This document shows, in pieces, positions 34,768 to 61,447 of a stretch of 64,000 nucleotides of DNA. A program made the position numbers and the translations under genes. Within the stretch, counting starts at the first letter, position 1, and each line of letters starts with the position of its first letter. Below the pieces are notes generated by a model, which worked only from the letters and a program-made list of their open reading frames with translations, searched no databases and had not been told where the DNA came from. The stretch comes from Candidatus Nitrosoglobus terrae. Its GTDB lineage: Bacteria; Pseudomonadota; Gammaproteobacteria; Nitrosococcales; Nitrosococcaceae. The DNA is taken from positions 124,001 to 188,000 of the forward strand of contig NZ_AP014836.1 in assembly GCF_002356115.1 (NCBI RefSeq), written 5' to 3'.

Positions 34768-36735
34768 ATGAGAAAAACAAAACTGGCTATGGCAGTTTCC
34801 CTAGCCCTTGCTGGCACCAGCGGAACGTTTGTAGCGAATGCCCAGGTTCCCAATGCGGGCATCAACGTCAACCCGGATGGATTAGGACAAGTACTGTTGT
34901 TTCCCTACTACACGGTGAGAAATAACAACAACACCTTAATTGCCATTGGCAACAGTCATCCTAACGAAGTCAAAGCGGTGAAAATCCGTTTCCATGAAGG
35001 TAAGAACAGTAAAGATACCCTAGATTTTCACATCTACCTGTCCCCCAACGACATGTGGACGGGGTCGTTAGTCCAAAGTCAAAACGGTGTGATGCTCACC
35101 ACGGCGGATAAATCCTGTACCGTGCCGCCTATTCCAGCCAATGGGGTTGAATTTCGGAACACCGTCTACGCCATTCAGCAGCCCGACGGGGAAGACATGA
35201 CCTTAGATCGGACGCGGGAAGGGTATATCGAAATCATCGAAATGGGGGTGGTGACTTCTGCTGCTGGCCCAATTACCAGTACTAACACCAATGTCACTAA
35301 CTTGGCACAAGCCGCTACCCACGTCAATGGTGTGCCCCAAGATTGTGCGGCGCTGAACAATGCGTGGGGCTCGGGTGGTCTGTGGGCTAACACGAACCCT
35401 CAGGGAAGCACCGGAGTGACCTCCCCTACAGGTGGCTTATTTGGGGATTTAGCTATTGTTAATGTGCCGCGGGGGACGGATTACACCGTCGCCGCCACCG
35501 CGTTGCAGAACTTTGCCCTTGGCACGCCTGGTCAATTGGTTGGAACCTTGGGTAATGAGGATCTCCACGCGGCCCCTGGGTCTGATTTCCCCAACCTAGG
35601 CTTTGATGCGGGCGCTACCAGTGGTGCGCCGGTACCAATCCTCCCAGCCGATGTGATGACCTTCAGCAATGTCTTTGTGGATGGAGGAATGGTGAGTTCC
35701 CAATGGGGTAATCGAATTGATGCCGTCAGTGCGGTGTTAATGCACGCCTCGGTGATCAACGAATACACCACTGAGCCAGGCTTAAACGCCAACACCGACT
35801 GGGTGTTGACCTTCCCCACCAAAAACTTCTATGTCTGTGCGGTGAATCCCGCTCCCACTGCCAACAGTCCCACCCCTAACACAGGCAATAGCGACTGCGC
35901 CCCTGGGGTAGTCGGTTCTGGCGTGCTCGCTGGTGCAACCTTTGGCCCGCCCTTTAGCCTACCGCAAGGCACAGGCTTTTGGACCGGAGGAGCGCCACAA
36001 AATGTAAATATGAACATCTTTGATCGGGAAGAAACCACCACCGTTCAGCCTATTGACTTCTCTCCCCCTTCTCCTACGGGTGCCAATACCCTACCGTGGG
36101 AAGTCAATACCATTACCTTCAACCAGCCTTCAGGCATGACCACCAGCACCGTACTGGGATCAGCGCTGGTGTCCAATGTATCCACGGGCAGTGTTGGGGT
36201 GAATGGTTGGATGAATTTAGATCTGACCCCCGGTCATAGTATGTCTACTAATGGTTTGGTTGTTAACAACGCTGGTGGTGGAGCTGCAACGACTACCTAT
36301 ATCGGTTTACCGGTCATTGGTTTTGGGGTGGAGGAGTATGTCAATGGAAGCATCAATGGTGTGCTAGCCAACTTCGCTTCTGTCTTCTCCCATAGACTCT
36401 GCGCAGCCACCACATCAGGCGGTGAGGGTAACACCGATTGCGGCGGTAATATCACGCTTCCTCCGCCAGCGACAGGTACTGGCACTAGCACTAGCACAAG
36501 TACCAGCACTGACACAGGTACAGGCACAGGTACAGGCACAGGTACAGGTACAGGCACAGGTACAGGCACAGGTACAGGCACAGGTACAGGTACAGGTACT
36601 GACACAGGTACAGGTACTGACACAGGTACAGGTACTGACACAGGTACAGGTACTGACACAGGTACAGGTACTGACACAGGTACAGGTACTGACACAGGTA
36701 CAGGTACTGACACAGGTACAGGTACTGGTCCATAA
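34768..36735 (+). CDS. Secreted protein of unrecognised family with Gly-Thr repeat tail
   Basis: Starting at ATG 34768, eight bases after AAAGGAGA, the 655-residue protein has a signal peptide, [20 protein letters not shown], cut near VANA-QVPN. The main part (about 28-560) shares blocks with the protein at 37899: [88 protein letters not shown] and [12 protein letters not shown]. Cysteines occur in matching places. The tail is Ser/Thr-rich, then a Gly-Thr repeat, then seven DTGTGT units. I know similar proteins as uncharacterised secreted proteins in other proteobacteria. Position after gspD suggests a type II secretion substrate. No sorting motif or membrane segment is seen at the C-terminus. 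Confidence 0.82.
36475..36731 (+). repeat. Tandem repeat: 6-base GGTACA/GGCACA units, then seven 18-base units
   Basis: Within the 3' end of the secreted-protein gene, 36517-36600 consists of 14 consecutive 6-base Gly-Thr units, GGTACA or GGCACA with a last GGTACT. From 36601 to 36726 the unit GACACAGGTACAGGTACT is repeated seven times without a base change, coding for DTGTGT. All units are multiples of three, so changes in copy number would alter tail length without shifting the frame. Confidence 0.95.
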
Positions 36736-49478: not shown

Positions 49479-50498
49479 ATGAAGCTACTTATTACTGGGG
49501 CAACGGGTTTTATTGGCCAACGCCTGGTGGCTACATTACTTTCAAGATCGGTATCAATTCGTGTATTGGTAAGAAGTACCGATAAAGCTAAAGCGATATG
49601 GAGTGATTCTTCGTTAGAAATGTTTCAAGGGGATTTAGCGATACCCCAGCTACCTGAGGATGTATGCGAGGGAGTAGATACTATTTTTCATTTAGCGAGT
49701 GGCAGCTTTGCTGAGGATGATAAAACAGGTGAGGCGGAACGGCTACACCAAAAATTAATAGTAGAAGGTACCAGAGAATTACTTCGACTAGCCATAAAAA
49801 CAGGTGTTAAGCGATTTATTTTTATAAGTAGTGTAAAAGCTATGGGTGAGGGGACAGAGAGCTGTCTGAATGAGTTAAGTTTAGCTGCCCCTAAGACAGC
49901 TTACGGTCGGGCGAAATTAAGCGCTGAGCAGATTGTATTAGAATCTGGCCGTGCCTATAACATGCATGTTTGTAATTTACGACTCCCTATGGTGTATGGG
50001 GGTGATAGTAAAGGAAATCTTCCTCGGATGGCGATGGCTGTTGCTCGGGGCTGGTTCCCGCCGCTGTCTGAAGCGGGGAATCGACGCTCAATGGTTCATG
50101 TAGAGGACGTAGTGCAGGCCATGTTACTTGCCGTTGAAAACCATCAGGCTCATGGCCAAACTTATATTGTTACTGATGATTATATTTACTCTTCTCGTCA
50201 GATGTACCTATTGATTTGCCAAGCTTTGGATCGATCCATTCCTCCATGGGTTTTTCCTATTTGGATCCTGCGGGTAAGTGCCAAAATAGGTGATCTTGCT
50301 GGGTCGATATTGAAAAGGAAGATGCCTTTAGACTCTAAGGTTTTATACAAAATAACCGGATCTGCATGGTATAGCTGCGCCAAAATAAAAAAAGAGCTCG
50401 GTTATAATCCTCAGTATTCGTTAGTAACAGCTCTACCTGAGATTTTAGAAATTTTAGGATTACCGAACTCCTCTAGAAAATCGCAAACATCTTCTTAA
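49479..50498 (+). CDS. NAD-dependent epimerase/dehydratase family protein
   Basis: A 339-residue short-chain dehydrogenase of the extended SDR type. It has LLITGATGFIGQRLVATLL at the start with the NAD loop, FHLASGSF near residue 75, FIFISSVKAMGEG and the catalytic YGRAK in AAPKTAYGRAKLSAEQIVLE near 145. VHVEDVV-like MVHVEDVVQAMLLAVEN lies near 210. The likely reaction is epimerisation, dehydration or reduction of a nucleotide sugar used by the neighbouring glycosyltransferases. It ends the polysaccharide cluster. Confidence 0.85.
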   Translation: MKLLITGATGFIGQRLVATLLSRSVSIRVLVRSTDKAKAIWSDSSLEMFQGDLAIPQLPEDVCEGVDTIFHLASGSFAEDDKTGEAERLHQKLIVEGTRELLRLAIKTGVKRFIFISSVKAMGEGTESCLNELSLAAPKTAYGRAKLSAEQIVLESGRAYNMHVCNLRLPMVYGGDSKGNLPRMAMAVARGWFPPLSEAGNRRSMVHVEDVVQAMLLAVENHQAHGQTYIVTDDYIYSSRQMYLLICQALDRSIPPWVFPIWILRVSAKIGDLAGSILKRKMPLDSKVLYKITGSAWYSCAKIKKELGYNPQYSLVTALPEILEILGLPNSSRKSQTSS

Positions 50499-51073
50499 AG
50501 TAATATGCGGGAGCAAAGCAGACATAAAAATCTATAAATTATTATAAGTAACAATGATTTTCTACTAGATTAATCTTATGCCCTCAAGTATGTGGTTTTC
50601 TGGTAAAGCGTACAAACCTGCCGCTATTTCTATAGAGATCCTCTAATCAATCATTGATTGAGTAAAAAGATCTCAGCTCAATAAAGCCGTAATACCACAA
50701 GATTGACAGTCATCTATTACCTGCATTTTAGCAGTGCTTTCTGTGATGCTATAGATAATATGCCAAATATTTGGCGGGTTAGGTGCTATAAAGTCAAAAT
50801 CCCGTCATATTATTTATATACTAGCTTAGATTAATAATAAAATATTTATTTATTATCAATGGGTTAATAAATAATTAATATTATTTTGGTGATTTGGAAC
50901 AGTTATTGCTTATTCTTTATTTAAACGTGAATGAGTGGCTGTAAAAGCAGGCTATTGGGGATATAGGAATATTAATAGTGATTTTTTATATGTTTAGTTT
51001 GGATCTACTTCGAGTAGAGATATATAAATATAAAAAAATAGAACTAAGGTAATTTTTAGTAGAGAGATAACTG
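50499..51073. other. Gap with hairpin and AT-rich tract
   Basis: No gene of normal size is seen. There is an imperfect hairpin, outer arms GAGATC (50635-50640) and GATCTC (50669-50674), with a perfect inner inverted repeat TCAATCA-T-TGATTGA at 50647-50661. From 50810 to 50900 the sequence is almost pure A/T. A short hairpin CTACT-TCG-AGTAG lies near 51007. This looks like a control region for the sigma-28 gene and its small upstream frame, but no promoter can be named with certainty. Confidence 0.5.
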
Positions 51074-51175
51074 ATGAAAATTAAAAATAACTTACAATCT
51101 TGGTTAAAGGTGTATTTCCTAGAAGGATTAATGAACAGCTATGTTAGGGCAAGTGATAAGGAAGGATTAGTATGA
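51074..51175 (+). CDS. Small 33-residue open frame coupled to fliA
   Basis: ATG 51074 opens a 33-codon frame (starting MKIKNNLQSWLKVYFLEGLM) whose TGA at 51173-51175 overlaps the fliA start as ATGA. A weak ribosome-binding stretch (AGAGAG) lies upstream. The peptide has no recognisable family. The ATGA coupling and position suggest either a translational leader for fliA or the last piece of a deleted upstream gene. It could also be chance. Confidence 0.4.
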   Translation: MKIKNNLQSWLKVYFLEGLMNSYVRASDKEGLV

Positions 51176-51897
51176 ATGCTGTTATTGCCCATTATACTGC
51201 TGCGTGCACCCAAAAAGATATCGATAATGTCATTATTGAGTATACATCGTTAGTTAAGCGTATTGCCTATCATGTATCGATTAAGCTACCGCCTAGCGTG
51301 CGCTTAGATGATCTTATTCAAGCTGGGATGATTGGTTTATTGGAAGCAGCTCGAAATTATGATGTTTCCCAGGGTGCAAGCTTTGAAACCTATGCTGGAA
51401 TCCGTATCCGTGGTGCCATATTAGATGAAATCCGCCGCAATGATTGGGCTCCACGCTCTGTCCACCGTAAAGCAAGACAAGTTACTGAGGCAATACGAAA
51501 GGTTGAGAATCGGGAGGGACGGGAGGCGAGGGATCATGAAGTGGCAAAAGAGCTAGGATTATCTCTTGATAAATATCATCGACTCTTGCAGGATGCTGGG
51601 AGCTATCAAGTACTTAGCCTTGATGAGTTCAGAGAAAATGAAGATGTTAACCTGCCTACTACCTCTTTAAAAGATCCTAGCGGAATATTACAGAACGAAA
51701 ACTTTCAATCTGCATTAGTGGAAACTATTGAAAATCTACCAGAACGGGAGCGACTGATCATGTCGCTTTACTATGTCGAAGATTTAAATCTTTTAGAGAT
51801 AGGTAAAGTATTGGGGGTTAGTGAGTCGCGAGTGAGCCAGATTCATGGCCAAGCCGTACTACGCCTTCGTGCGCGCCTGCGCCAGTGGTTAAGCTAA
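51172..51897 (+). CDS. fliA: RNA polymerase sigma-28 factor FliA
   Basis: FliA directs RNA polymerase to late flagellar and chemotaxis promoters. The 241-residue protein has sigma region 2 with LVKRIAYHVSIKLPPSVRLD, DLIQAGMIGLLEAARNYD and ETYAGIRIRGAILDEIRRND, then region 3 (RSVHRKARQVTEAIRKVENR) and region 4 (NLPERERLIMSLYYVEDLNL and GVSESRVSQIHGQAVLRLRA). The length and the regions all fit FliA. No flagellar gene lies near it in this window: neither flhF, flhG nor the motor genes that normally adjoin it. It may control genes other than flagellar ones, or the flagellar genes lie elsewhere. Confidence 0.92.
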   Translation: MNAVIAHYTAACTQKDIDNVIIEYTSLVKRIAYHVSIKLPPSVRLDDLIQAGMIGLLEAARNYDVSQGASFETYAGIRIRGAILDEIRRNDWAPRSVHRKARQVTEAIRKVENREGREARDHEVAKELGLSLDKYHRLLQDAGSYQVLSLDEFRENEDVNLPTTSLKDPSGILQNENFQSALVETIENLPERERLIMSLYYVEDLNLLEIGKVLGVSESRVSQIHGQAVLRLRARLRQWLS

Positions 51898-52344
51898 AGT
51901 ATTTAGCCGGTCTTACTTCCTATGAAGTACCGCCTTATAATTTAATTAAATCAAGAAAAATAATCTAGATTTGGCTTTAAAAAGCTATGAGATGGAGGTA
52001 GCTAAAGTTTAATGGCATAAAATTTGCTTAACTTATGCGCTTCTTTGCCGCTGAAATATTGGTATGATATATCTTGCATAGAAAAAATACAGGCATTCCG
52101 AAAAATAAAAGGCCCTCACAATAGAGCCAAACCACCGGTGTATGCTCTGAGTGTGGTGTAATAGGTGAGAAACTGCCGCTAAATATACGAGAATGGGAGT
52201 GTAAAGATTGCAATTAAAGTAATCTTACAGATGCGGTTGTGACACGCTAGCCGTTAGCTCCGATCACCGGGTAATACCTAGTGTTGTCTAGTAATAGATC
52301 TAGTCTATAGATTTAAATTATTATAATTCTAAGAGTTTTTGTTT
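51898..52344. other. Gap with weak hairpin and transposon fossil
   Basis: After fliA a weak stem (CGGT...ACTTC with GAAGT...ACCG, about 51907-51933, bulged) precedes an AT-rich run and could end fliA transcription. The middle holds the TnpB fragment listed separately. No other gene is seen. Confidence 0.4.
52125..52213 (+). pseudogene. TnpB (IS200/IS605 OrfB) zinc-ribbon fossil
   Basis: The frame starting at 52125 reads SQTTGVCSECGVIGEKLPLN followed by IREWECKDCN and ends in TAA. This matches the C-terminal zinc ribbon of IS200/IS605-family TnpB, in which two CxxC pairs are separated by about 16 residues with a conserved REW/REWxC. The HDRD motif that should follow is missing, and an in-frame stop lies right before the fragment. 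Hence it is a truncated relic of an insertion sequence, not a working TnpB. Confidence 0.72.
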
Positions 52345-52740
52345 ATGCTAAGTACTGAAAGCTTACAGTTAAGTTTTATGCTATCTAAGTATAGTAAAGA
52401 AGCTGTAAAATCTTCCATCCTAGCTTACTATGAATCTAAGTATCTTTGGCGGGATCGTCGCTCAGGGTTCGATCGTCGCAAACCTAAGAAGCTAGGTCTG
52501 TCATTTGAGCGACGTATTATTAGAGATCGGCGTAATATTGAATCTCCTAAGGTGATTCAGCATCGTCGAGCTAGAACTCAGCTTAGGAGACGATTAAGAG
52601 AATATCAAGTTAGCCACTCTCTTAATCGTCTTTTCATTGGAGCTGCTGCGTTATTAATGGTTATAGTATTAGTGTGCATAATGATTTTCTTAAAATTAAC
52701 AAAATGCAAAGAAATTTTTATATGCGCTTTATCAATATAA
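52345..52740 (+). CDS. Small basic protein with one membrane segment
   Basis: I do not recognise this protein. From ATG 52345 it has 131 residues. The middle is very rich in arginine: WRDRRSGFDRRKPKKLG and FERRIIRDRRNIESPKV. A hydrophobic helix, LFIGAAALLMVIVLVCIMIF, occupies about 95-115 and a short cysteine-containing tail follows. The DRRSGxDRR pattern also appears in small hypothetical proteins of other gammaproteobacteria. It may sit in the inner membrane with its charged part in the cytoplasm. No operon partner is evident; TerC starts 120 bases downstream. Confidence 0.65.
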   Translation: MLSTESLQLSFMLSKYSKEAVKSSILAYYESKYLWRDRRSGFDRRKPKKLGLSFERRIIRDRRNIESPKVIQHRRARTQLRRRLREYQVSHSLNRLFIGAAALLMVIVLVCIMIFLKLTKCKEIFICALSI

Positions 52741-52860
52741 ATAAAGCTTAATTGTTTTTATAGGCAAGCACTGGGCTATTAATGTTAATTTTAATAAAAA
52801 TCAAAAATCAAGTGGAGGTTAGCGGCAATCTTTAGGTGTAGATTTAGGGATAATTAAGTA

Positions 52861-54078
52861 ATGGAGTCCTTAGTTTGGATTGGATCTATTGGGATCATTA
52901 TTGGGTTATCCATTTTAGATTTTTTTCTTCCTAGCCTTAGACGGACGCGCACAATACCTGCTAAAGAATCCTTGTCTTGGGTAATTATTTGGGGAGTACC
53001 CGCCCTTTGTTTTAATATTTTTATATATTTTTTGTATGAAAATAACTGGTTTGGGTGGGCTGATCTACCATCCCATACGGCTAATGGACAACAGGCTGTT
53101 ATTCAATTCTTTACTGGATTTCTCTTAGAGAAATCCCTATCTGTAGATAATATCTTTGCGGTTACTACGATCTTTTTATACTTAAAAGTGCCCTTGGTGG
53201 AGCAAGATCGTATGTTGCAATGGAGTACCCTAAGTGTACTAGGATTACGGGCGGGTATGATTGCACTAGGTGTTGTATTGATATACCGCTTCCATTGGAT
53301 GAATTATCTATTTGGATGGGTACTCATCATGATAGCTATAAAAACGCTTATCATCCACCAAGATAAAGTCATCATAGGGCATAATCCATTAATCTTATTG
53401 GCAATGAGATTTTATCCAATTACAGATAATTTTAAAGGGGAAAATTTCTTTAGCCCTATATGGGGGAATCAGACTATAACTCCCTTTATACTTGCGTGGG
53501 GATTAATTGCGAGCAGTCATTTAATCTTTGCTTTTAGTTCTACCCTAGCGGCTTTTGTAGTGAGTCAAGATCCTTTTTTGGTATTTACCAGTAACGCGTT
53601 CTCCCTACTCGGTTTTAGAGCACTTTACCTTACCCTTAAAGACTATATAGATCGGTTGCGTTATATTAAGCTGGGTTTGGTTTTTATTTTTGCTTATCTA
53701 GCAATCAAAATAATATTCATTCAATCTTATCCTATTCCAAATATTACTTCTTTAGCTGTTATCAGCACTATTCTTACGTTTAGTATCCTTGCCTCAATAG
53801 CTGTATTACCTACAGATTCTCATAATAAGAAGCCTCTTTTTAATGATGTAGCTATCTTAGCCGTTCTTAGCTATCGGCAAGCACGGAAAATTGTGGTATT
53901 GGTTTCAGGCACTTTGGTACTTTTAGTTGGGATTGCAATGATTGTATTACCTGGCCCGGCTGTTGTTGTCATCCCAATTGGATTGGGTATTTTAGCTATT
54001 GAGTTTGCTTGGGCGAGACGGTGGCTACAAAAAATACGTCAAACAGCTGGGAAAATTAAGCAACGGATACAGGGCTAG
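52861..54078 (+). CDS. TerC/Alx-family membrane protein with C-terminal PGPGW-type domain
   Basis: The 405-residue protein has about nine membrane segments. The first part (about 1-310) matches TerC/Alx family proteins, linked to manganese export and tellurite or alkaline stress: GFLLEKSLSVDNIFAVTTIF near residue 85, WSTLSVLGLRAGMIALGVVL and FTSNAFSLLGFRALYL. The C-terminal 80 residues (LVLLVGIAMIVLPGPAVVVI, then PIGLGILAIEFAWARRWLQ) resemble the separate PGPGW transmembrane family, so this looks like a fusion. No yybP-ykoY-like riboswitch was recognised upstream. MscS-type channel gene follows after 39 bases. Confidence 0.82.
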   Translation: MESLVWIGSIGIIIGLSILDFFLPSLRRTRTIPAKESLSWVIIWGVPALCFNIFIYFLYENNWFGWADLPSHTANGQQAVIQFFTGFLLEKSLSVDNIFAVTTIFLYLKVPLVEQDRMLQWSTLSVLGLRAGMIALGVVLIYRFHWMNYLFGWVLIMIAIKTLIIHQDKVIIGHNPLILLAMRFYPITDNFKGENFFSPIWGNQTITPFILAWGLIASSHLIFAFSSTLAAFVVSQDPFLVFTSNAFSLLGFRALYLTLKDYIDRLRYIKLGLVFIFAYLAIKIIFIQSYPIPNITSLAVISTILTFSILASIAVLPTDSHNKKPLFNDVAILAVLSYRQARKIVVLVSGTLVLLVGIAMIVLPGPAVVVIPIGLGILAIEFAWARRWLQKIRQTAGKIKQRIQG

Positions 54079-54117
54079 TTTTGCTGAGTATTAGCAATAA
54101 TTAACTCATCGGTTGTT

Positions 54118-57100
54118 ATGAAGCAAACGATAAGTTTAAGTAATATCAGCATATGGCTATTAAAATTATTTTTTATGCTTATTTTATGGCAAGAAGCTAT
54201 TGGAGTTTCTTTAGCAACGCCGGCGATTGAGATTACCCATCTAGATTCTGGTGCGGTACTAGCGCAAGTTCAAGGTAAAATTAAGGAGATAGAAGAGGAT
54301 CAAGGATTAGATAGTGTACAGAAGAAAAAATTATTAGATCTATACCGATTAGCAAAGGAACGTTTACAGGCGGTTAAGACTTATAAAGATAATGTTAGTG
54401 CTTATAGGCAGGCTATTGAGCTGATACCGGCTCAGATAGAGAAAATAAACAAAGATCTTGCGTCCACAAGTACAGATAGGGTTATTACTCCTTTAAATCA
54501 ATCGGGCGATAGTACTTCTCTTCTTGATCTAGAGCAATACCTAACGCAAAGAGAGGCAAAATTAACCGCCTTAGAGGGGGTCTTAGCGGGGTTAGATAAA
54601 CAGCTACAGGAGCAGCAACCTCGGATTAGACAGGCACGGGATCAGTTAGCAGAAGCAAAGCAGCGGCAAGAGCAGATAGAAATTGAGCTTAAAGTACCCC
54701 CTCGGGAAGGGGAAATTTCTTTTATTTCTGAAGCCAGTCAACTAGCATCTCAAGCCAAATTAGAAGCTTGTCTTAGTGAAATTGAGATGCTTGAACAGGA
54801 GTTATTAAGCTACAATCCACGGCTCCAGTTATTGAAAGCGCAACGCGACCTTACTGCCCAACAGATTGCGCAAGCTCAAGTACAGGTTAAATTTCTACGA
54901 CAATTAATTAATCAGCGGCGGCAGACCGAGGTAGGGCAGGTTCAGAGAGTGACCGCCCTAGCTGAACAAGAATCAGCGGGTAAAGATCCAGCTATCCAAA
55001 GATTGGCCGAGCAAAATGCACGGCTGGGGGAAGAACTTGCTTCCATGGTTGCCAAGTTAAGTCAAATTCCTGCTAAGGGTGAGATTGCTGAAACCCAACT
55101 AAAACTGATAGAACAAGAATCTAAAAGTGCACGGCAAAGATTAGAGATTGCAGGATTGAATGAAGCGTTACAGCAGATTTTACAAAAACAACGCCGTAGC
55201 TTACCTGAGCTAAGCTATTATCGGATTGAAATTAGGAAGAATCGTCAAGAAATGGCTGAAGTCGGCCTCAGTCAGCTGCGCATTGACGATCAACGTCAAC
55301 AGCTTAGCAAGATTAATGATGCTGTAAACCAAGAACTAGCTGGACCAGTTAGCTTACAGCTACCTCTATCTAAGCAGGGGGAGATAAAAATAGAGGTACG
55401 TAAGCTGTTAGAAAGCCAGCGCTCTTTGCTCGATAAACTCAGCGCAACCCAAACCCAGTATCTCTTATCGATAGGAGATTTGGACTTTACCCAACAGCAG
55501 CTGATCAGTAAGGTTGAGCAATATACAAAGTTTCTAGATGAGCATTTACTCTGGATTCCAAGTACCTCCCCTTTAGATGTTAGGACTTGGCATGGCTTGC
55601 TGATTAGCATCACTTGGTTATTCTCTCCAAGTAATTGGCTAGAAACTACCCATGTGTTGAGAGTAGCTGTGATGGATGAGATTCTATTAATTACTACCGT
55701 AATACTCGTTTTTATCGGGCTAACCCTGATGCGCCATCGCTTACCTAAGATTCTGGAATCGATTGCAGAGCGAGTAGCGATGATTTATGTGGATCGTTTT
55801 AATTTTACCCTTCGAGCTTTAACCGTAACGTTACTGGCGGCATTACCATGGCCATTATTATCTGGGTTTACTGGTTGGCTGTTACAGATTTCCCCTGAAG
55901 CCTCTGAATTTAGTAAAGCGGTAGGGGCTGGATTAACTGCTATTACGCTGCCCTTATTTTCAATGCACGGGCTTCAGCTCTTATGTTACAAAGATAATGG
56001 GGTAGCCCAAGCTCATTTTCGCTGGGGATCCCAAGCGGTAGAGGTTTGGCGGCGAAATATTACTTGGGCTATCCCAGTTGGTTTGTCCGCTTTATTTATC
56101 ACAGCGATGGCAAATGCTCAAACCAGAGAAGTATATGCTGAAAGTCTAGGACGAATAAGTTTTATCATCGGCATGGGAGTATTTGCGATCTTTTTTCAAC
56201 GAGTGTTAAAACCTAAAGGAGGTATTGTTGAGTGGTATTTAACTGATCAGCCTTCAGGCTGGCTATCCCGTTTTCGCTATCTTTGGTATTCGGGAATAGT
56301 TATCTTTCCTACGGCTTTGATGGGGCTAGCGATAATGGGTTATTTTTATACAGCATTGCATCTTAATTATGAAATTGTTGCTACATTTCGGTTGATTATT
56401 GCAATCGTGTTGGTTCGTGATTTGGTGATACGCTGGTTAGTCGTCGCTCAACGTAAGCTGGCTTTAGTTAAAATGCGGGAAAGACGTGAAGCTGAACGAG
56501 TAACCCTTTCTACTAGAGAGGCCGCAAGCCAATCTGGAGAAGGAATGCCGCCTAAGCTCGATATTGATCAAGTAGATATTCAGACAATTAATGCTCAGAC
56601 GCGTCAGCTACTACACACTATTATAGGGTTGTCACTGGTCATTGGACTTTGGCTAATTTGGTCATCTACGGTTCCAGCCCTTGGGATTCTGAATGATGTC
56701 ACTCTTTGGTATCACGCTGTCGTTATTGAAGGGCAAGAGGTTCAAAAGCCTTTTACGCTGGCCAATCTTGCTGTGGCTCTAGCCTTAGCTTTAGTAGCCT
56801 TTGGGGCAACGAGAAATCTTCCTGGCGTTTTAGAAATAATGATACTACGGCGGCTGCCGCTGGAGCCAGGCAGTCGTTATGCAATTACTGCCCTATGCCG
56901 TTATGCCCTTGGAATTATTGGGATCGTCGTGGTATTTGAAGCTATTGGGGGCAGCTGGTTTCAAATTCAATGGCTGGTAGCTGCCCTTACGGTGGGATTA
57001 GGTGTTGGCCTGCAGGAAATATTTGCTAATTTTGTTTCAGGATTAATTATTTTATTTGAGCGACCGATTCGAGTAGGGGATGTGATCACCATTGGAGATG

Positions 57101-57576
57101 TTTCGGGAACAGTTTCCAGAATTAGAATTCGGGCAACTACGGTGACAGATTTTGATCGTAAAGAACTCATTGTTCCCAATAAAACGTTTATTACTGATAA
57201 ACTGGTGAATTGGACTCTCTCTGATTCAACGACTCGGATAACGATTAAAGTGGGTATTGCTTATGGATCGGATACTATACTTGCTCACCAAGTCATTTTA
57301 GGAGTAGTCAAAGCAAATCCCTTAGTGTTAGAGGATCCAAAGCCTAGTGTTTATTTTATGGGTTTTAGGGAGGGCTTATTGGATTTTGTGGTGTGGGCTT
57401 TTGTAAGAGAGTTAGGTAATCGCAATCCTTTAATACATGAGCTAAATATTGCCATTAATCAAGTGCTGGGTGAGCAGGGGATTAAGATCCCTTCTCCTCA
57501 GTTAGACATTCATGTGCGGTCTGTTACGCCAACCCCCACGGAAATTCAGCTCTTAAAAGATATAAAAGCAGGCTAA
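54118..57576 (+). CDS. Large MscS-family mechanosensitive channel (MscK/KefA type)
   Basis: MscK-type channels open under membrane tension and release solutes on osmotic downshock. The 1152-residue protein has a signal peptide, a long periplasmic coiled coil (about 40-460) with many Gln/Glu/Arg heptads, and multiple membrane segments from about 505. The MscS core is at the C-terminus (about 900-1140): FQIQWLVAALTVGLGVGLQE, FANFVSGLIILFERPIRVGD and the beta domain TTVTDFDRKELIVPNKTFIT. Length and layout equal E. coli MscK/YjeP. A gene for a TerC protein precedes it by 39 bases, so they may share a transcript. Confidence 0.92.
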   Translation: MKQTISLSNISIWLLKLFFMLILWQEAIGVSLATPAIEITHLDSGAVLAQVQGKIKEIEEDQGLDSVQKKKLLDLYRLAKERLQAVKTYKDNVSAYRQAIELIPAQIEKINKDLASTSTDRVITPLNQSGDSTSLLDLEQYLTQREAKLTALEGVLAGLDKQLQEQQPRIRQARDQLAEAKQRQEQIEIELKVPPREGEISFISEASQLASQAKLEACLSEIEMLEQELLSYNPRLQLLKAQRDLTAQQIAQAQVQVKFLRQLINQRRQTEVGQVQRVTALAEQESAGKDPAIQRLAEQNARLGEELASMVAKLSQIPAKGEIAETQLKLIEQESKSARQRLEIAGLNEALQQILQKQRRSLPELSYYRIEIRKNRQEMAEVGLSQLRIDDQRQQLSKINDAVNQELAGPVSLQLPLSKQGEIKIEVRKLLESQRSLLDKLSATQTQYLLSIGDLDFTQQQLISKVEQYTKFLDEHLLWIPSTSPLDVRTWHGLLISITWLFSPSNWLETTHVLRVAVMDEILLITTVILVFIGLTLMRHRLPKILESIAERVAMIYVDRFNFTLRALTVTLLAALPWPLLSGFTGWLLQISPEASEFSKAVGAGLTAITLPLFSMHGLQLLCYKDNGVAQAHFRWGSQAVEVWRRNITWAIPVGLSALFITAMANAQTREVYAESLGRISFIIGMGVFAIFFQRVLKPKGGIVEWYLTDQPSGWLSRFRYLWYSGIVIFPTALMGLAIMGYFYTALHLNYEIVATFRLIIAIVLVRDLVIRWLVVAQRKLALVKMRERREAERVTLSTREAASQSGEGMPPKLDIDQVDIQTINAQTRQLLHTIIGLSLVIGLWLIWSSTVPALGILNDVTLWYHAVVIEGQEVQKPFTLANLAVALALALVAFGATRNLPGVLEIMILRRLPLEPGSRYAITALCRYALGIIGIVVVFEAIGGSWFQIQWLVAALTVGLGVGLQEIFANFVSGLIILFERPIRVGDVITIGDVSGTVSRIRIRATTVTDFDRKELIVPNKTFITDKLVNWTLSDSTTRITIKVGIAYGSDTILAHQVILGVVKANPLVLEDPKPSVYFMGFREGLLDFVVWAFVRELGNRNPLIHELNIAINQVLGEQGIKIPSPQLDIHVRSVTPTPTEIQLLKDIKAG

Positions 57577-57587
57577 AGACTGGCTAC

Positions 57588-57857
57588 TTATTTTCCTAAG
57601 AGTTTTTTAACGCGCTTATATCCGCTTTCTATTTCTTCAGCAGCTAAGGTTAAAGAGGTAAAAATATTTTTAGAGCTGGCAATGGATTCATCTCGAATTG
57701 CGTTTAATGTGGGCTTCAATTTTTCCCATTTCTCTTCTATTTGTTCCCATTCTTCTTGAGCTTCAAGCTTTCCTAGATGTATTTGTACCCGTAGCTCATC
57801 ACGCTGCTGTTCTAAATAATCTAAAAACTCTTGAAGGGAATCTCTATCATGGCTCAT
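57588..57857 (-). CDS. Small charged coiled-coil protein
   Basis: The 89-residue protein is nearly all helical and rich in Glu, Lys and Gln: DSLQEFLDYLEQQRDELRVQ, IHLGKLEAQEEWEQIEEKWE and AAEEIESGYKRVKKLLGK. It is cytoplasmic, with no signal or membrane segment. I recall similar short proteins of unknown function in gammaproteobacteria. It converges on the mechanosensitive channel gene with 11 bases between. No function is offered. Confidence 0.7.
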   Translation of the reverse strand: MSHDRDSLQEFLDYLEQQRDELRVQIHLGKLEAQEEWEQIEEKWEKLKPTLNAIRDESIASSKNIFTSLTLAAEEIESGYKRVKKLLGK

Positions 57858-58011
57858 AGCGTTTTTCCTTATATAGATATTAAAAATTTAGGATCTCAGC
57901 ATAATTCATTTAGCTATTTTTGCCAATCTTTATAAGTAGATCCTATTTTAGTGGGTTATCAGTCTTTTGCCTTTTGCCCTTTAGACTACGCGCTTTGTAG
58001 ATTCTATTGGA

Positions 58012-59976
58012 TTACATTGCACTAACGTAGAGGAATTTATTTATGGCCTTAAAGAGTTTCTCGAATCGATCCAAAGCCTCGGCTACTGCCAGATCGTCCT
58101 GTTGTAGGCACTCCGGATTACGTAGAAGCCAATTGGCAGGAATAAAATGGTTAAAGCTGGGAGCATCTGGGGGAAGGCAACGCTCAACCTGCTTTACGAT
58201 CCTTTGTGTATTCGGGTCGGCCTTGGCTGCCTTGTCAGGTGTGATCTGCTGTATACCCTTTAAGCCAAGTGCTTGGTTGACCAGATCGCAGTATAGTTTC
58301 GCCCCGAATAGATCTTCCACGTCCGACTTGTCTTTTCCAGAGAAATTGGTCGCAATAAGGATGCGGGATGACTCCAGAATCTGGCTTTGTCGCAGGCGTT
58401 CGATCTTGGATCTGTCGCCCTTTCCGAAGTCGCAGAACACTACGATGTTTAGTCGGTTTCCAGCAAACAGCGACGCAAAAGATGCGACTTTATCTAGTCC
58501 TCCCATGGGGCAGATAGTCCAGCGAGTCATATCTAGATATTCCCGCTGCCTAGATTGAAGTGCATTGGACATCATTTGCAGATAGATAATATCAGATGGA
58601 CCTTCTACTAGTAAGCAATTTGGGCCGATAAAGAGAGATTGAGTAATTTCATAACCGAGGCAGGCTTGCAAAGGGAAGATGGTATCGCGATCTACTGAAA
58701 GCACATTGGCCGACACTTTGGTTCCTTTGATCACTGGACGATTAGCATTAGATCGATCTACAAGATCTTCAACTACGCGTACGTCAGTTAAATGCTGCAC
58801 AGGCACCATAAAGGGTGAATGGGTTGAGTAGATCACTTGATGTTCTGGCAAGATCCGATCATTAATATATCGCAGCAAGTCAGACTGTGCTTTGCCATGG
58901 AGCGTTAGCCCCGGCTCATCGAGAAGAATGATAGACTCCCCGGAGTGTTTCTTCAACTGCTTGAATTGGGCAATGAACGAGAAGAACCAAATAAAACCAG
59001 CGCTTCGTTCTGAAAGGGGTAGGCTTACTCGGTGATTTTTGTTCTTAATCCGAATCTTGGCTACTCGGCCAGTGTTAAATGGTGGAGGGTCGTCTTTTAA
59101 CCCATCGCCGATATCGATCTCCACCTCCAGTGCATCGTTTTGACTCCAGAATTCAAAGATTTCATCTGTAATATTGTTGGAGGCTGCCTCGCACTTGGCC
59201 TTGAGTTCTTCGAGCTTAGTTGCATTTTGAAGTTCCTCAATGGATGTTCCAGCGTACTCCAAGAAGTCTAGGAAGATCTGATCCCTAGGTTCAACTTTTC
59301 CTTGCTGCCTGTCTCGCAAAAGCTTGTCTAGTGATATTTCACCCGCCATACGCTGAAAAAAAGAAGTATAAAAGAAGCGGGGTAGTCGCTTCGAGAGAAT
59401 GTTAGCTGCGGCCTCGGTCGCAGACTTACTGTTCAGTGTAATCAGGGTATCTAATAAGGCTTTCTGTCCATTAGATGGTTCGGATAACCCCTGCAGTGCA
59501 ACCCGTGCCTCGTGAATGGTAGTGCTCTCTTTTATTGCGGTTTTCTCATCGGCGGTTAGTGAACATCGACCGATCAAATTTTGAAGGCATTTTTTTTCAT
59601 CGACAGGTACAACCCATGCCAAGGTATCACGCCCAATATAACTGGTGATCATCACGATATCGCCAGAAAGTGCGCCGTCACCTAGTTTATCTTCTATCGC
59701 CCGCACATCTTCGGTATCCAAAGACCACTCTGTGATGGTAACTTTCGACTGTCCATCGGGGTGGCGCTCATCATAATGATTAAGGTAGCGACGTGGGTAG
59801 TCTCGTGTCCGATCATAAGTGAAACTGGGGGTTGATTTTATCCCGTGAAGTGCTTCAAGAATGGCAGTCTTGCCAGATTCATTTTTCCCAACGAGGCATG
59901 TAAGGTCACCGATTTCAAATTCGGTGCTATCTTCCACTGACCGAAAATTGAGCACTTGGGTTTTGATTAGTTTCAT
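58012..59976 (-). CDS. OLD-family ATPase with C-terminal TOPRIM nuclease domain
   Basis: OLD proteins pair an ABC/SMC-like ATPase with a TOPRIM nuclease, and several act against phages. The 654-residue protein has Walker A GKNESGKTAILEALHG near residue 30, an LSERSAGFIWFFSFIAQFK signature near 325, Walker B SIILLDEPGLTLHGKAQSDL near 350, and THSPFMVP as the H-loop. The TOPRIM part has LLVEGPSDIIYLQMMS near 460, VFCDFGKGDRSKIERL and KSDVEDLFGAKL. The gene is GC-richer than its neighbours, consistent with lateral transfer. No UvrD-like helicase partner lies beside it, so it is a class 1, stand-alone OLD. Its defence role is inferred from the family. Confidence 0.88.
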   Translation of the reverse strand: MKLIKTQVLNFRSVEDSTEFEIGDLTCLVGKNESGKTAILEALHGIKSTPSFTYDRTRDYPRRYLNHYDERHPDGQSKVTITEWSLDTEDVRAIEDKLGDGALSGDIVMITSYIGRDTLAWVVPVDEKKCLQNLIGRCSLTADEKTAIKESTTIHEARVALQGLSEPSNGQKALLDTLITLNSKSATEAAANILSKRLPRFFYTSFFQRMAGEISLDKLLRDRQQGKVEPRDQIFLDFLEYAGTSIEELQNATKLEELKAKCEAASNNITDEIFEFWSQNDALEVEIDIGDGLKDDPPPFNTGRVAKIRIKNKNHRVSLPLSERSAGFIWFFSFIAQFKQLKKHSGESIILLDEPGLTLHGKAQSDLLRYINDRILPEHQVIYSTHSPFMVPVQHLTDVRVVEDLVDRSNANRPVIKGTKVSANVLSVDRDTIFPLQACLGYEITQSLFIGPNCLLVEGPSDIIYLQMMSNALQSRQREYLDMTRWTICPMGGLDKVASFASLFAGNRLNIVVFCDFGKGDRSKIERLRQSQILESSRILIATNFSGKDKSDVEDLFGAKLYCDLVNQALGLKGIQQITPDKAAKADPNTQRIVKQVERCLPPDAPSFNHFIPANWLLRNPECLQQDDLAVAEALDRFEKLFKAINKFLYVSAM

Positions 59977-60396
59977 AAGATCTTCCTCATCACGCTACAA
60001 TACTAGCCTGGTCTATATCGGGATGGCTTCCATAGTTAAGATGGAAGCCCAATGCAGCTCATAGCGCCTGTGATTGTATTGCATGTGTTTTTGAATCTCC
60101 TTTTTCTTTACCCAATGTTTCTTATTGGCGTACTTTGTAGTTCGATAGCAGTACCTCGGCAGTGCTAGGCTTGTAATCGGCCTCTTGCTTGGTGATCTCT
60201 AACAGATTCTTTGTGATGAGATATATCCGCTACGCATGATGCCAATGATATATAGGTTATATAATAATAATATTATTGCATAACAGAGCCGATATATCTT
60301 AATAACCCCTCCTATTACATAGAGAGGGTGATAGGGTGATAAAGAGCGTTTTAGTATTTTAACTTCATAGTATTTTATTTTTCTAATCCTTTAATT
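59977..60396. other. Gap with gene fragments and inverted repeat
   Basis: On the minus strand a 35-codon frame reads LITKNLLEITKQEADYKPST through LLSNYKVRQ and a stop at about 60126; another ends LNYGSHPDIDQASIVA at a TGA about 12 bases before the OLD start. Both are GC-rich like the OLD gene, so they look like the end of a decayed partner gene. To the right, AGATATATC (60219-60227) and GATATATCT (60291-60299) form a 9-base inverted repeat around an A/T-rich core. No intact gene is seen. Confidence 0.45.
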
Positions 60397-61143
60397 ATGG
60401 CGAATTTTAATATCCATATGCTGGGTGCAGCGGCAGTAAGCGGCATTGGAGTTACGACTCTACTGATAACCCGTGCTTTTCCGCCCTCTATGCTGATGGC
60501 TTATTTTATCCTAGGGATACTTGGTGGAATGCTGCCTGATATTGACTCTAAAAGTTCTATTGCTATTCGTTGGGTATTTAGTGTTTTGGGTGTAGGGATT
60601 GGGTTTTTTTTAGTTTTATATTTTGGGACTCATTATTCACTTATTGAGCTGGTTATTTTGTGGGGCACCTGCTTTATCATAGTTCGTTATGGAGTGTCTT
60701 CTTTGCTCACTAAGTTAACTGTCCATCGGGGTCTTATTCACTCCATTCCGGCTGGACTCTCTTTTTCCTTGGGTGCTGTTATCTTAGCGGTACAGATATT
60801 TGGTATCTCCCTATTGAATGCTTGGCTTTGTGGATTATTTTTATTCTCAGGGTTTATTACCCACTTAGTCTTGGATGAGCTTTATAGCGTCGATCTAAGG
60901 GGGATACGGGTAAAAAAATCTTTTGGTAGCGCCCTAAGCTTGGGGAGTTTCCGCACCCCATTCGGAACCCTGTTACTTTATCTATTGACCGGCATTTTAG
61001 TATACCTAGCCCCACCTATAGATAAATTTCTAGCCTTTATCTACAGTTCTAAATTACATCAATTATTACTTAAACGGCTGCTACCCGCAGAAGATTGGTT
61101 TCATCATCTAGTTACTGCAATTCATCGGTTTTTGCTGCCATAA
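60397..61143 (+). CDS. Membrane metal-dependent hydrolase of the YdjM/DUF457 family
   Basis: The 248-residue protein has about five membrane segments and two conserved spots: FILGILGGMLPDIDSKSS near residue 40 and KLTVHRGLIHSIPAGLSF near 110, with a THLVLDELYSVDL motif near 162. These HxxxD/LPDID patterns match the LexA-regulated YdjM type of inner-membrane, presumed zinc-dependent hydrolases, whose substrate is unknown. Its 3' end overlaps the end of the pterin dehydratase gene by 32 bases, tail to tail. Confidence 0.87.
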   Translation: MANFNIHMLGAAAVSGIGVTTLLITRAFPPSMLMAYFILGILGGMLPDIDSKSSIAIRWVFSVLGVGIGFFLVLYFGTHYSLIELVILWGTCFIIVRYGVSSLLTKLTVHRGLIHSIPAGLSFSLGAVILAVQIFGISLLNAWLCGLFLFSGFITHLVLDELYSVDLRGIRVKKSFGSALSLGSFRTPFGTLLLYLLTGILVYLAPPIDKFLAFIYSSKLHQLLLKRLLPAEDWFHHLVTAIHRFLLP

Positions 61144-61447
61144 TAAAATCATTTTTATGGAGTCCTTTGATTTTATGGGACCACCAAGTAATAGTGACCT
61201 GTCCATAGGCGGTGAGAATATCTGGGTGGTGCCCGTTCTCCTCTGCCAATGCTCCGGCTTTATTAGTAAAGGTTAGCGCTTCAGCAAAATTATTAAACTT
61301 AAATACACGCTGTAAGCGATTGATATTATTTTCTTGGATGATGTTCCAATGAGGAATTTGGGCGTGTAGCACTTTGATTTCTGCCTCAGTGACTAAGGGT
61401 GCACCTACCCGGCAGGCTTCGCAGTGCATTGTGGTTAATTTCTCCAT
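61112..61447 (-). CDS. 4a-hydroxytetrahydrobiopterin dehydratase (PCD)
   Basis: This enzyme, also called pterin-4-alpha-carbinolamine dehydratase, recycles the pterin cofactor of aromatic amino-acid hydroxylases. The 111-residue protein has the family stretch IPHWNIIQENNINRLQRVFK, FNNFAEALTFTNKAGALAEE, and the catalytic pair in NGHHPDILTAYGQVTITWWS near residue 72, followed by the HKIKGLHKNDFIMA end. The N-terminal MEKLTTMHCEACRVGAPL is typical of proteobacterial copies. The gene for a phenylalanine hydroxylase is not in the window. Confidence 0.94.
   Translation of the reverse strand: MEKLTTMHCEACRVGAPLVTEAEIKVLHAQIPHWNIIQENNINRLQRVFKFNNFAEALTFTNKAGALAEENGHHPDILTAYGQVTITWWSHKIKGLHKNDFIMAAKTDELQ

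What the first reader, a model, noticed from the sequence alone, without database searches (positions are those of the whole stretch)
58012..60140. Stand-alone OLD nuclease in GC-richer DNA, likely defence gene
The ATPase and TOPRIM motifs are complete, the composition differs from neighbours, and gene fragments of similar composition lie upstream. OLD-family proteins include the P2 Old exclusion protein and the GajA half of Gabija. No GajB partner is seen, so it is class 1 or the remnant of a two-gene system whose partner has decayed.
Basis: partly seen in the sequence, partly recalled or inferred. Interest (0 to 1): 0.5.

Follow-up and report, generated by a model that had tools for sequence, protein, structure and literature searches.

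The report
Stand-alone OLD-type defence nuclease gene
A bacterium that oxidises ammonia carries, at one spot absent from its sequenced relatives, an intact single gene for an ATP-driven nuclease of a kind that bacteria use against viruses; its closest relatives sit inside other anti-virus operons, so it is most likely an ordinary, horizontally acquired defence gene.

Summary
The gene is real: an intact 654-codon ORF at 58012-59976 (-), not reaching 60140. It encodes an OLD-family protein with an ABC ATPase head and a TOPRIM domain. Walker A, Walker B and H-loop are intact. The TOPRIM is not fully 'complete': E458, D462, D516, D552 and E554 are kept, but the second Asp of DxD is Gly518, replaced in 25 of 27 family sequences. 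It looks acquired: codon use is second most deviant of 46 window ORFs, it occurs in 1 of 6 family and 7 of 369 class genomes, and relatives are scattered over plasmids and phyla. GC alone is unremarkable (13th of 46). No GajB or other partner is present; the upstream 'fragments' match nothing usable. Of 34 related loci, 14 lie with type I R-M, BREX or other methyltransferase-based defence genes; one has a UvrD/GajB-like helicase. The predicted C-terminal domain resembles Class 2 OLD (Bp/Xcc) more than Class 1 TsOLD, so it fits neither class cleanly. Most likely a single-gene abortive-infection or guard nuclease (untested). OLD-TOPRIM genes in BREX are already in print (PMC12839542): a new member of a known kind, moderate interest.

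The parts
58012..59976 (-). OLD-family gene, 654 aa: N-terminal ABC ATPase (AAA_15 match aa 1-391) and C-terminal TOPRIM domain
   Evidence: ORF; Pfam; models; Foldseek best match TsOLD 6p74
59866..59889 (-). Walker A, aa 30-37 (GKNESGKT)
   Evidence: read from the translation; K36 in 26 of 27, the other row a fragment with a gap
58906..58926 (-). Walker B and following loop, aa 351-357 (LLDEPGL)
   Evidence: D353 and E354 in 27 of 27
58819..58821 (-). H-loop histidine H386
   Evidence: 27 of 27
58015..58641 (-). C-terminal region aa 446-654 modelled alone: TOPRIM core plus C-terminal helices
   Evidence: model m0fbe4c29ec0c, pLDDT 88.8, pTM 0.87; Z 10.7-10.9 to Xcc/Bp OLD C-terminal regions, Z 9.2 to TsOLD
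58591..58605 (-). TOPRIM acidic residues E458 and D462 (taken as TsOLD E377/D381 by motif)
   Evidence: 27 of 27 each; PMC7049728 passages
58423..58431 (-). degenerate DxD: D516-F517-G518
   Evidence: D516 in 26 of 27; Asp at 518 in 2 of 27
58315..58323 (-). D552-V553-E554, taken as the second metal site by motif
   Evidence: D552 in 26 of 27 (Glu in one), E554 in 27 of 27
59984..59987 (-). AGGA ribosome-binding-like sequence, 7 nt before the ATG
   Evidence: read; not tested
   Evidence: no credible match:
57588..57857 (-). conserved 89-aa gene flanking the locus (not part of the system)
   Evidence: present in 5 of 6 family genomes
60397..61143 (+). YdjM-like membrane protein flanking the locus (not part of the system)
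   Evidence: present in 6 of 6 family genomes; Pfam YdjM

Best explanation
An intact, horizontally acquired, single-gene OLD-family nuclease. SHOWN: a 654-aa ABC ATPase-TOPRIM protein with its ATPase motifs intact and all but one of the expected acidic metal-site positions kept; patchy distribution; atypical codon use; no partner gene at the locus; relatives that recur with R-M and BREX genes. INFERRED: the ATPase head dimerises and, when phage infection gives a trigger (an anti-restriction protein, DNA ends, or a shift in nucleotide pools), lets the TOPRIM domain cut DNA or RNA, so that the infected cell or the phage genome is lost. In relatives inside R-M or BREX operons it would be a back-up fired when the first line fails. 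Here it sits alone and would act by itself, or in trans with the type I R-M-like genes elsewhere in the genome.
For: Family: Pfam AAA_15 and OLD-like_TOPRIM; phmmer to TsOLD 6p74 E 1.6e-11; Foldseek ranks TsOLD first (8e-12) and GajA second (5e-10); the C-terminal model matches OLD C-terminal regions first. Active site: with PMC7049728 and PMC6755086 (passages; single mutants of BpOLD ligands, D457A included, had no discernible effect). Acquisition: codon use z 8.0, rank 2 of 46; 1 of 6 family genomes and only 2 of 63 order genomes with a close copy; 7 of 369 class genomes at E 1e-60; 91 of 72,556 plasmid records. Defence context: 14 of 34 relative loci; in the window gene's clade of 7 (100/99) the five other rows with a readable upstream side all lie in BREX or type I R-M loci. 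Precedent: IbfA, a single plasmid gene with ATPase and TOPRIM domains, lowers phage yield (PMC12111858, passages). The genome has three strong N6_Mtase (HsdM-like) loci elsewhere.
Against: No function was tested. 20 of 34 relative loci show no R-M or BREX gene in the same gene string. The DxD is degenerate, so nuclease strength and substrate are uncertain. In YbjD the TOPRIM domain was dispensable for the anti-phage phenotype (PMC13261556, passages), and Cran1 is an OLD protein with a cell-cycle role (PMC12796447, passages). No background rate of R-M adjacency was measured. Codon deviation is also high for likely native genes such as biotin carboxylase.
Confidence: 0.7

Rival explanations
1. 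Orphaned R-M or BREX accessory: it arrived as part of an R-M or BREX operon whose other genes were lost; without them it has no trigger and is on the way to decay.
For: Its nearest clade is operon-embedded; 420 bp of unassignable DNA lies upstream.
Against: The ORF is intact with the family's conserved catalytic positions kept; several plasmid relatives are annotated as whole genes without an R-M or BREX neighbour in the stretch shown; no operon remnant was found.
Confidence: 0.12
2. TOPRIM altered: the family acts mainly through the ATPase head, or cuts RNA rather than DNA. (Not exclusive with the main reading.)
For: Second Asp of DxD replaced in 25 of 27; YbjD TOPRIM dispensable; AriB TOPRIM cuts tRNA (PMC12409363, passages).
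Against: E458, D462 and E554 in 27 of 27, D516 and D552 in 26 of 27; in BpOLD the second DxD Asp reaches the metal only through waters and its single mutation had no discernible effect.
Confidence: 0.15
3. Remnant of a Gabija system (GajA whose GajB has decayed).
For: The C-terminal domain matches the Class 2 Bp/Xcc OLD regions best; one relative, L060, overlaps a UvrD-type helicase by 4 nt (PADLOC RTasHel 1.5e-65, GajB 5e-58).
Against: phmmer with the L060 helicase finds no second one among 595 ORFs; PADLOC Old (4e-21) scores above the best GajA model (1e-14); no GajB remnant at 57858-58011 or 59977-60396.
Confidence: 0.06
4. Cellular DNA-repair or cell-cycle ATPase, not defence.
For: Cran1 precedent.
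Against: Patchy distribution, plasmid carriage, R-M and BREX neighbours of relatives.
Confidence: 0.06

Closest known systems
Class 1 OLD (TsOLD 6p74; P2 Old; YbjD)
   Same: Single gene; ABC ATPase plus TOPRIM; TsOLD is the best whole-model Foldseek hit and best sequence hit in the PDB.
   Different: DxD is D-x-G; extra predicted C-terminal helices that TsOLD lacks; about 130 residues longer than TsOLD (525 aa).
Class 2 OLD (GajA of Gabija; BpOLD, XccOLD)
   Different: No UvrD-like helicase partner at the locus; only 1 of 34 relative loci has one.
TOPRIM-linked OLD-ABC modules of BREX and BREX-related systems (PMC12839542)
   Same: In four relatives the gene follows brxC by 33-36 nt, with a PglX-type gene further on; the paper (passages, section 35 part 1) reports such modules as back-up effectors.
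   Different: The window copy has no BREX gene next to it.
IbfA / HEC-04 (PMC12111858, passages)
   Same: Single gene with ATPase and TOPRIM domains, plasmid-borne, lowers phage yield.
   Different: About 518 codons (1557 bp) against 654; IbfA was not aligned to the window protein here.
PrrC and PARIS guards of R-M
   Same: Accessory effectors linked to R-M that fire on anti-restriction (PMC12707154, passages).
   Different: PARIS is two genes (AriA, AriB); PrrC's effector is an anticodon nuclease of another fold (recalled). The trigger is not known here.

Membership tests
OLD family (ABC ATPase + TOPRIM) | N-terminal ABC ATPase with Walker A, Walker B, H-loop | tested here: met
   model
OLD family (ABC ATPase + TOPRIM) | C-terminal TOPRIM domain | tested here: met
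   Pfam OLD-like_TOPRIM 24.1 bits, cut-off 23.2; fold matches
Class 1 OLD | metal-site residues including both Asp of DxD, described as conserved among Class 1 homologs | tested here: not met
   D516-F-G518; the statement is in PMC7049728. Mapping is by motif, not by superposition.
Class 1 OLD | single isolated gene | tested here: met
   no partner found at the locus
[quoted passage not shown]
   predicted helices between aa 553 and 653; Bp/Xcc regions align over 171-173 residues, TsOLD over 137. Prediction only.
Class 1 OLD | protects against phage alone | not testable with these tools
   needs a bench test
[quoted passage not shown]
   neighbours
Class 3 OLD (retron) | adjacent reverse transcriptase and ncRNA | tested here: not met
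   neighbours are the 89-aa gene and YdjM; no Rfam family at 57500-61200, which does not exclude an uncurated ncRNA
Class 4 OLD (PARIS) | ATPase and TOPRIM encoded as two adjacent genes | tested here: not met
   one 654-aa ORF holds both
BREX / R-M accessory module | encoded next to BREX or R-M genes | tested here: not met
   not at this locus; met for 14 of 34 relatives; strong N6_Mtase loci at about 0.79, 1.85 and 1.97 Mb, the gene at 0.18 Mb

The most novel reading that the evidence does not exclude
The window gene belongs to an unnamed OLD subclass, distinct from Classes 1-5: a single gene with a Class-2-type helical C-terminus but no helicase partner and a TOPRIM with D-x-G instead of D-x-D, which moves freely between plasmids, R-M operons and BrxF/PglXI-type BREX operons as a plug-in guard that fires when the resident modification-based defence is inhibited.
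Probability: 0.3. Interest if true: 0.5.

Novelty: new member of a known kind. Interest (0 to 1): 0.32.

Why it matters
A 2023 review (PMC10568477, passages) asks whether an isolated OLD protein can give broad protection on its own, and knew only P2 Old as an example; later work on IbfA and YbjD (passages) bears on this. The family found here occurs both alone and inside R-M and BREX operons, so the question can be tested in matched settings. The family-wide change of the second DxD aspartate also allows a test of which metal ligands OLD nucleases really need.

Tried and rejected
Partner remnant upstream: six-frame reading, tblastn with neighbour proteins, Pfam on short frames, plasmid blastn and family-genome DNA search (outside the place itself only pieces of 52 bases or less, the best 27 bases at E 0.0013 elsewhere in the own genome) gave nothing usable. 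The two lowest E-values were dismissed: L015 5959-6402(-), 2e-6, which lies antisense to that locus's own OLD gene, in a tiny database; and L069 13169-13603, 0.002, 31% over 61 residues. The Pfam hits (zf-U11-48K 0.019, Cornichon 0.13) are below cut-off.

Insertion-site repeats: 10-23 nt, the perfect ones only 10-12 nt, one 10-nt pair lying on the two sides of the gene; no target-site duplication is claimed. Promoter and terminator scan: 6 against 5.8 and 3 against 2.6 in shuffles. Rfam: none.

Phage origin: 2 of 50,697 phage records match weakly; one viral-contig scan confirmed none. E. coli: no DNA match. None of these shows absence of distant relatives.

'Multi-copy in G042': the partial matches lie at contig ends; one (L052) follows a Tn3 transposase. 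They may be one gene broken by assembly and a transposon, so I claim no copy number.

VIA-align of the whole model is dominated by SMC/Rad50 heads and says nothing on class. Whole-model TM-scores are low (0.28/0.34, rmsd 18.7 for TsOLD), as expected if domains are placed differently.

Rows left out of the 34-locus count: L014 (same locus type as L012, gene interrupted), L070 (near-identical to L064), L058/L066 (same contigs as L050/L051), L051, L052, L053 (G042 fragments), L079/L080 (same contigs as L064/L060), L003/L008 (pieces of L054), L004-L006 (short N-terminal matches), L011 (29%, context not read). 15 of 91 plasmid records were opened. Linked by my rule means a co-directional gene string with R-M, BREX or methyltransferase-based defence genes; in L050 an ISL3 transposase and in L013 a 118-aa ORF lie between. 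Not counted as linked: L096 (hsdR 1.1 kb away, other strand), L064 (Pycsar cyclase on the other strand, 168 nt away), L019 (PDC-S37/MkoA-like gene 1.4 kb upstream), L092 (HamB-like helicase 2.2 kb away), L062 (PDC-S02 1.3 kb upstream). Neighbour evidence is uneven: PADLOC for many, annotation for L013 and L093 (L093 HsdS also by phmmer), BLAST or phmmer to those for others; not every neighbour of the 20 unlinked loci was scanned, so 14 is a lower bound. The family count of 27 includes near-duplicates (L064/L070, L081/L082), one fragment (L051) and one distant row (L054).

Full report
WHAT IS THERE. The window lies at G000:C1:124001-188000 of a 2.02-Mb genome in two contigs. The finding is one ORF, 58012-59976 on the - strand, 654 aa, ATG start, with AGGA 7 nt before the ATG. 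The genome has one match to the protein, the gene itself. It also has an ammonia monooxygenase subunit (PF02461, E 1e-117), and its family holds three genera in the set searched; from recall this fits a gammaproteobacterial ammonia oxidiser such as 'Candidatus Nitrosoglobus', which no call names.

FAMILY. Pfam: AAA_15 9e-26, OLD-like_TOPRIM 5e-5, just over its cut-off. PADLOC: AriA model 8e-27 (a 373-position model that covers the ATPase part), Old 4e-21, best GajA 1e-14. NCBIfam: none of 23 listed models reaches its cut-off. PDB by sequence: TsOLD 6p74 E 1.6e-11. An AlphaFold2 model from 15 sequences has mean pLDDT 79, pTM 0.67; Foldseek ranks TsOLD first (8e-12) and GajA second (5e-10), with low TM-scores. 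Residues 446-654 modelled alone (pLDDT 88.8, pTM 0.87) match the C-terminal regions of XccOLD and BpOLD best (Foldseek E 4e-5 to 1e-4; Z 10.7-10.9 over 171-173 residues), with retron Eco2 within one unit (Z 10.0), then TsOLD (Z 9.2 over 137) and GajA (Z up to 8.8). The models put helices between aa 553 and 653. TsOLD is described as lacking the C-terminal helical domain of Class 2 (PMC7049728, passages), so the protein is Class-2-like in its predicted C-terminus and Class-1-like in gene context.

ACTIVE SITE. TsOLD metal residues are E377, D431, D433 (A) and D381, S478, E480 (B); BpOLD: E400, D455, D457 and E404, T506, E508, plus K562 (PMC6755086, passages). By motif the window protein has E458, D516, G518 and D462, D552, E554, with R592 or K595 as basic candidates; this mapping is not a superposition, and one search's paper warns that sequence alone could not place these residues between classes. 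Over 27 aligned family proteins: E458 27, D462 27, D516 26, E554 27, D555 27, D552 26, R592 24; Asp at 518 in 2 of 27, one (L019) only after a two-residue insertion and the other (L054) a distant row. The change at 518 is thus a family trait, not decay of this copy. In BpOLD that Asp reaches the metal only through waters and its single mutation had no discernible effect, so activity is plausible but unproven. K36 is in 26 of 27 (one gap), D353, E354 and H386 in 27 of 27.

ORIGIN. GC is ordinary (rank 13 of 46 ORFs), GC3 rank 6, but codon use deviates by z 8.0, rank 2 of 46; the next ranks include genes that look native, such as a biotin carboxylase, so this alone does not prove transfer. In the class 7 of 369 genomes match at E 1e-60, own genome included. 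91 of 72,556 plasmid records match, all under 60% identity. The flanking 89-aa gene and YdjM are found in 5 of 6 and 6 of 6 family genomes; in the four g3 genomes they are about 7.4 kb apart. In the two g3 stretches read (L047, L048) five genes lie between, with no match in this window; for the two of them searched, own-genome matches are partial or weak. So the gene sits at a junction where gene content differs between genera. No insertion boundary could be defined.

NEIGHBOURS OF RELATIVES. 34 loci were examined (27, 7 plasmids). In 14 the gene lies in a co-directional string with modification-based defence genes: type I R-M in 8 (L050, L054, L057, L059, L081, L082, L084; L093 by annotation and an HsdS match), BREX in 4 (L055, L056, L067, L068; brxC 33-36 nt upstream; L068 also has BrxF and PglXI), a methyltransferase (PADLOC type II 7.5e-89, type III 2e-56) with a UvrD-type helicase in 1 (L060), DUF1156/DUF499 in 1 (L013, annotation). 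In L050 an ISL3 transposase lies between the HsdR-like gene and the OLD gene. The other 20 show no such string in what was scanned (and annotation), though some have other defence genes near: a Pycsar cyclase beside L064 (6.5e-103) and hsdR 1.1 kb from L096. On a tree of 26 rows the window protein sits in a clade of 7 (100/99); L055, L056, L057, L067 and L068 are in BREX or type I R-M loci, and L065 begins 257 bases from the end of its stretch. A background rate of R-M adjacency was not measured.

PARTNER QUESTION. Neither 59977-60396 nor 57858-58011 holds a recognisable gene or remnant (for the second stretch only). The L060 helicase has no second relative among 595 ORFs from the relatives' stretches and the window's last 14 kb (phmmer, E 1e-5). 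A decayed Gabija is therefore unlikely.

FUNCTION. Most likely a single-gene abortive-infection or guard nuclease: the ATPase head senses an infection-linked trigger and licenses the TOPRIM domain. The chemistry is inferred from TsOLD, BpOLD and GajA, the guard idea from operon context and from PrrC and PARIS (PMC12707154, passages). The genome's strong N6_Mtase (HsdM-like) loci lie far away, so a link to them is possible only in trans.

KNOWN OR NEW. PMC12839542 (passages; [quoted passage not shown] it credits earlier ABC-ATPase work, which I could not read. Classes 1-4 and a Class 5 are described in PMC12796447 (passages). I did not see the D-x-G variant described in the passages read (paper searches), which is not proof that it is unreported. 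The window gene is a new member of a known kind.

Noticed in passing
L060:5035-11915 (Thiothrix MAG): A 989-aa UvrD-type helicase (PADLOC RTasHel 1.5e-65, GajB 5e-58) overlaps the OLD gene by 4 nt and a methyltransferase follows 30 nt later: a possible hybrid of Gabija-like and R-M parts.
   Followed up: partly
L050:1-6344 and L052 (G042, Methylophaga MAG): An ISL3-family transposase lies between an HsdR-like gene and the OLD gene; another OLD piece follows a 1010-aa Tn3 transposase, and a same-sized ORF lies at the other end of that contig.
   Followed up: partly
L014:6001-10000 (Caballeronia plasmid): The OLD gene is interrupted after about codon 533 by a transposase gene, while the related plasmid locus L012 has it whole; a TIR-domain gene lies nearby in both.
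   Followed up: no
L064:10134-10886 (Stenotrophomonas geniculata): A Pycsar cyclase match (PycC, 6.5e-103) lies 168 nt from the OLD gene on the other strand.
   Followed up: no
L081:5436-6500 (G183): Upstream of the HsdS-like gene and OLD lies a strong match to PADLOC candidate family PDC-S05 (1.6e-160).
   Followed up: no
L057:2618-3703 and L062:5562-6674: PADLOC candidate PDC-S02 (PD-DExK-like) genes lie in two of the OLD neighbourhoods.
   Followed up: no
window 34768-36735 (+): 655-aa ORF with the most deviant codon use of the 46 ORFs tested and no Pfam match at 1e-3.
   Followed up: no
window 49479-61143 against L049 (G058): In genus g2 the YdjM gene lies directly beside an epimerase gene whose counterpart is about 10 kb away here; TerC, MscK-like, 89-aa and OLD genes lie in that interval.
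   Followed up: partly
G000:C1 about 791, 1847 and 1966 kb: Three strong N6_Mtase (HsdM-like) loci in the same genome; their neighbourhoods were not read.
   Followed up: no
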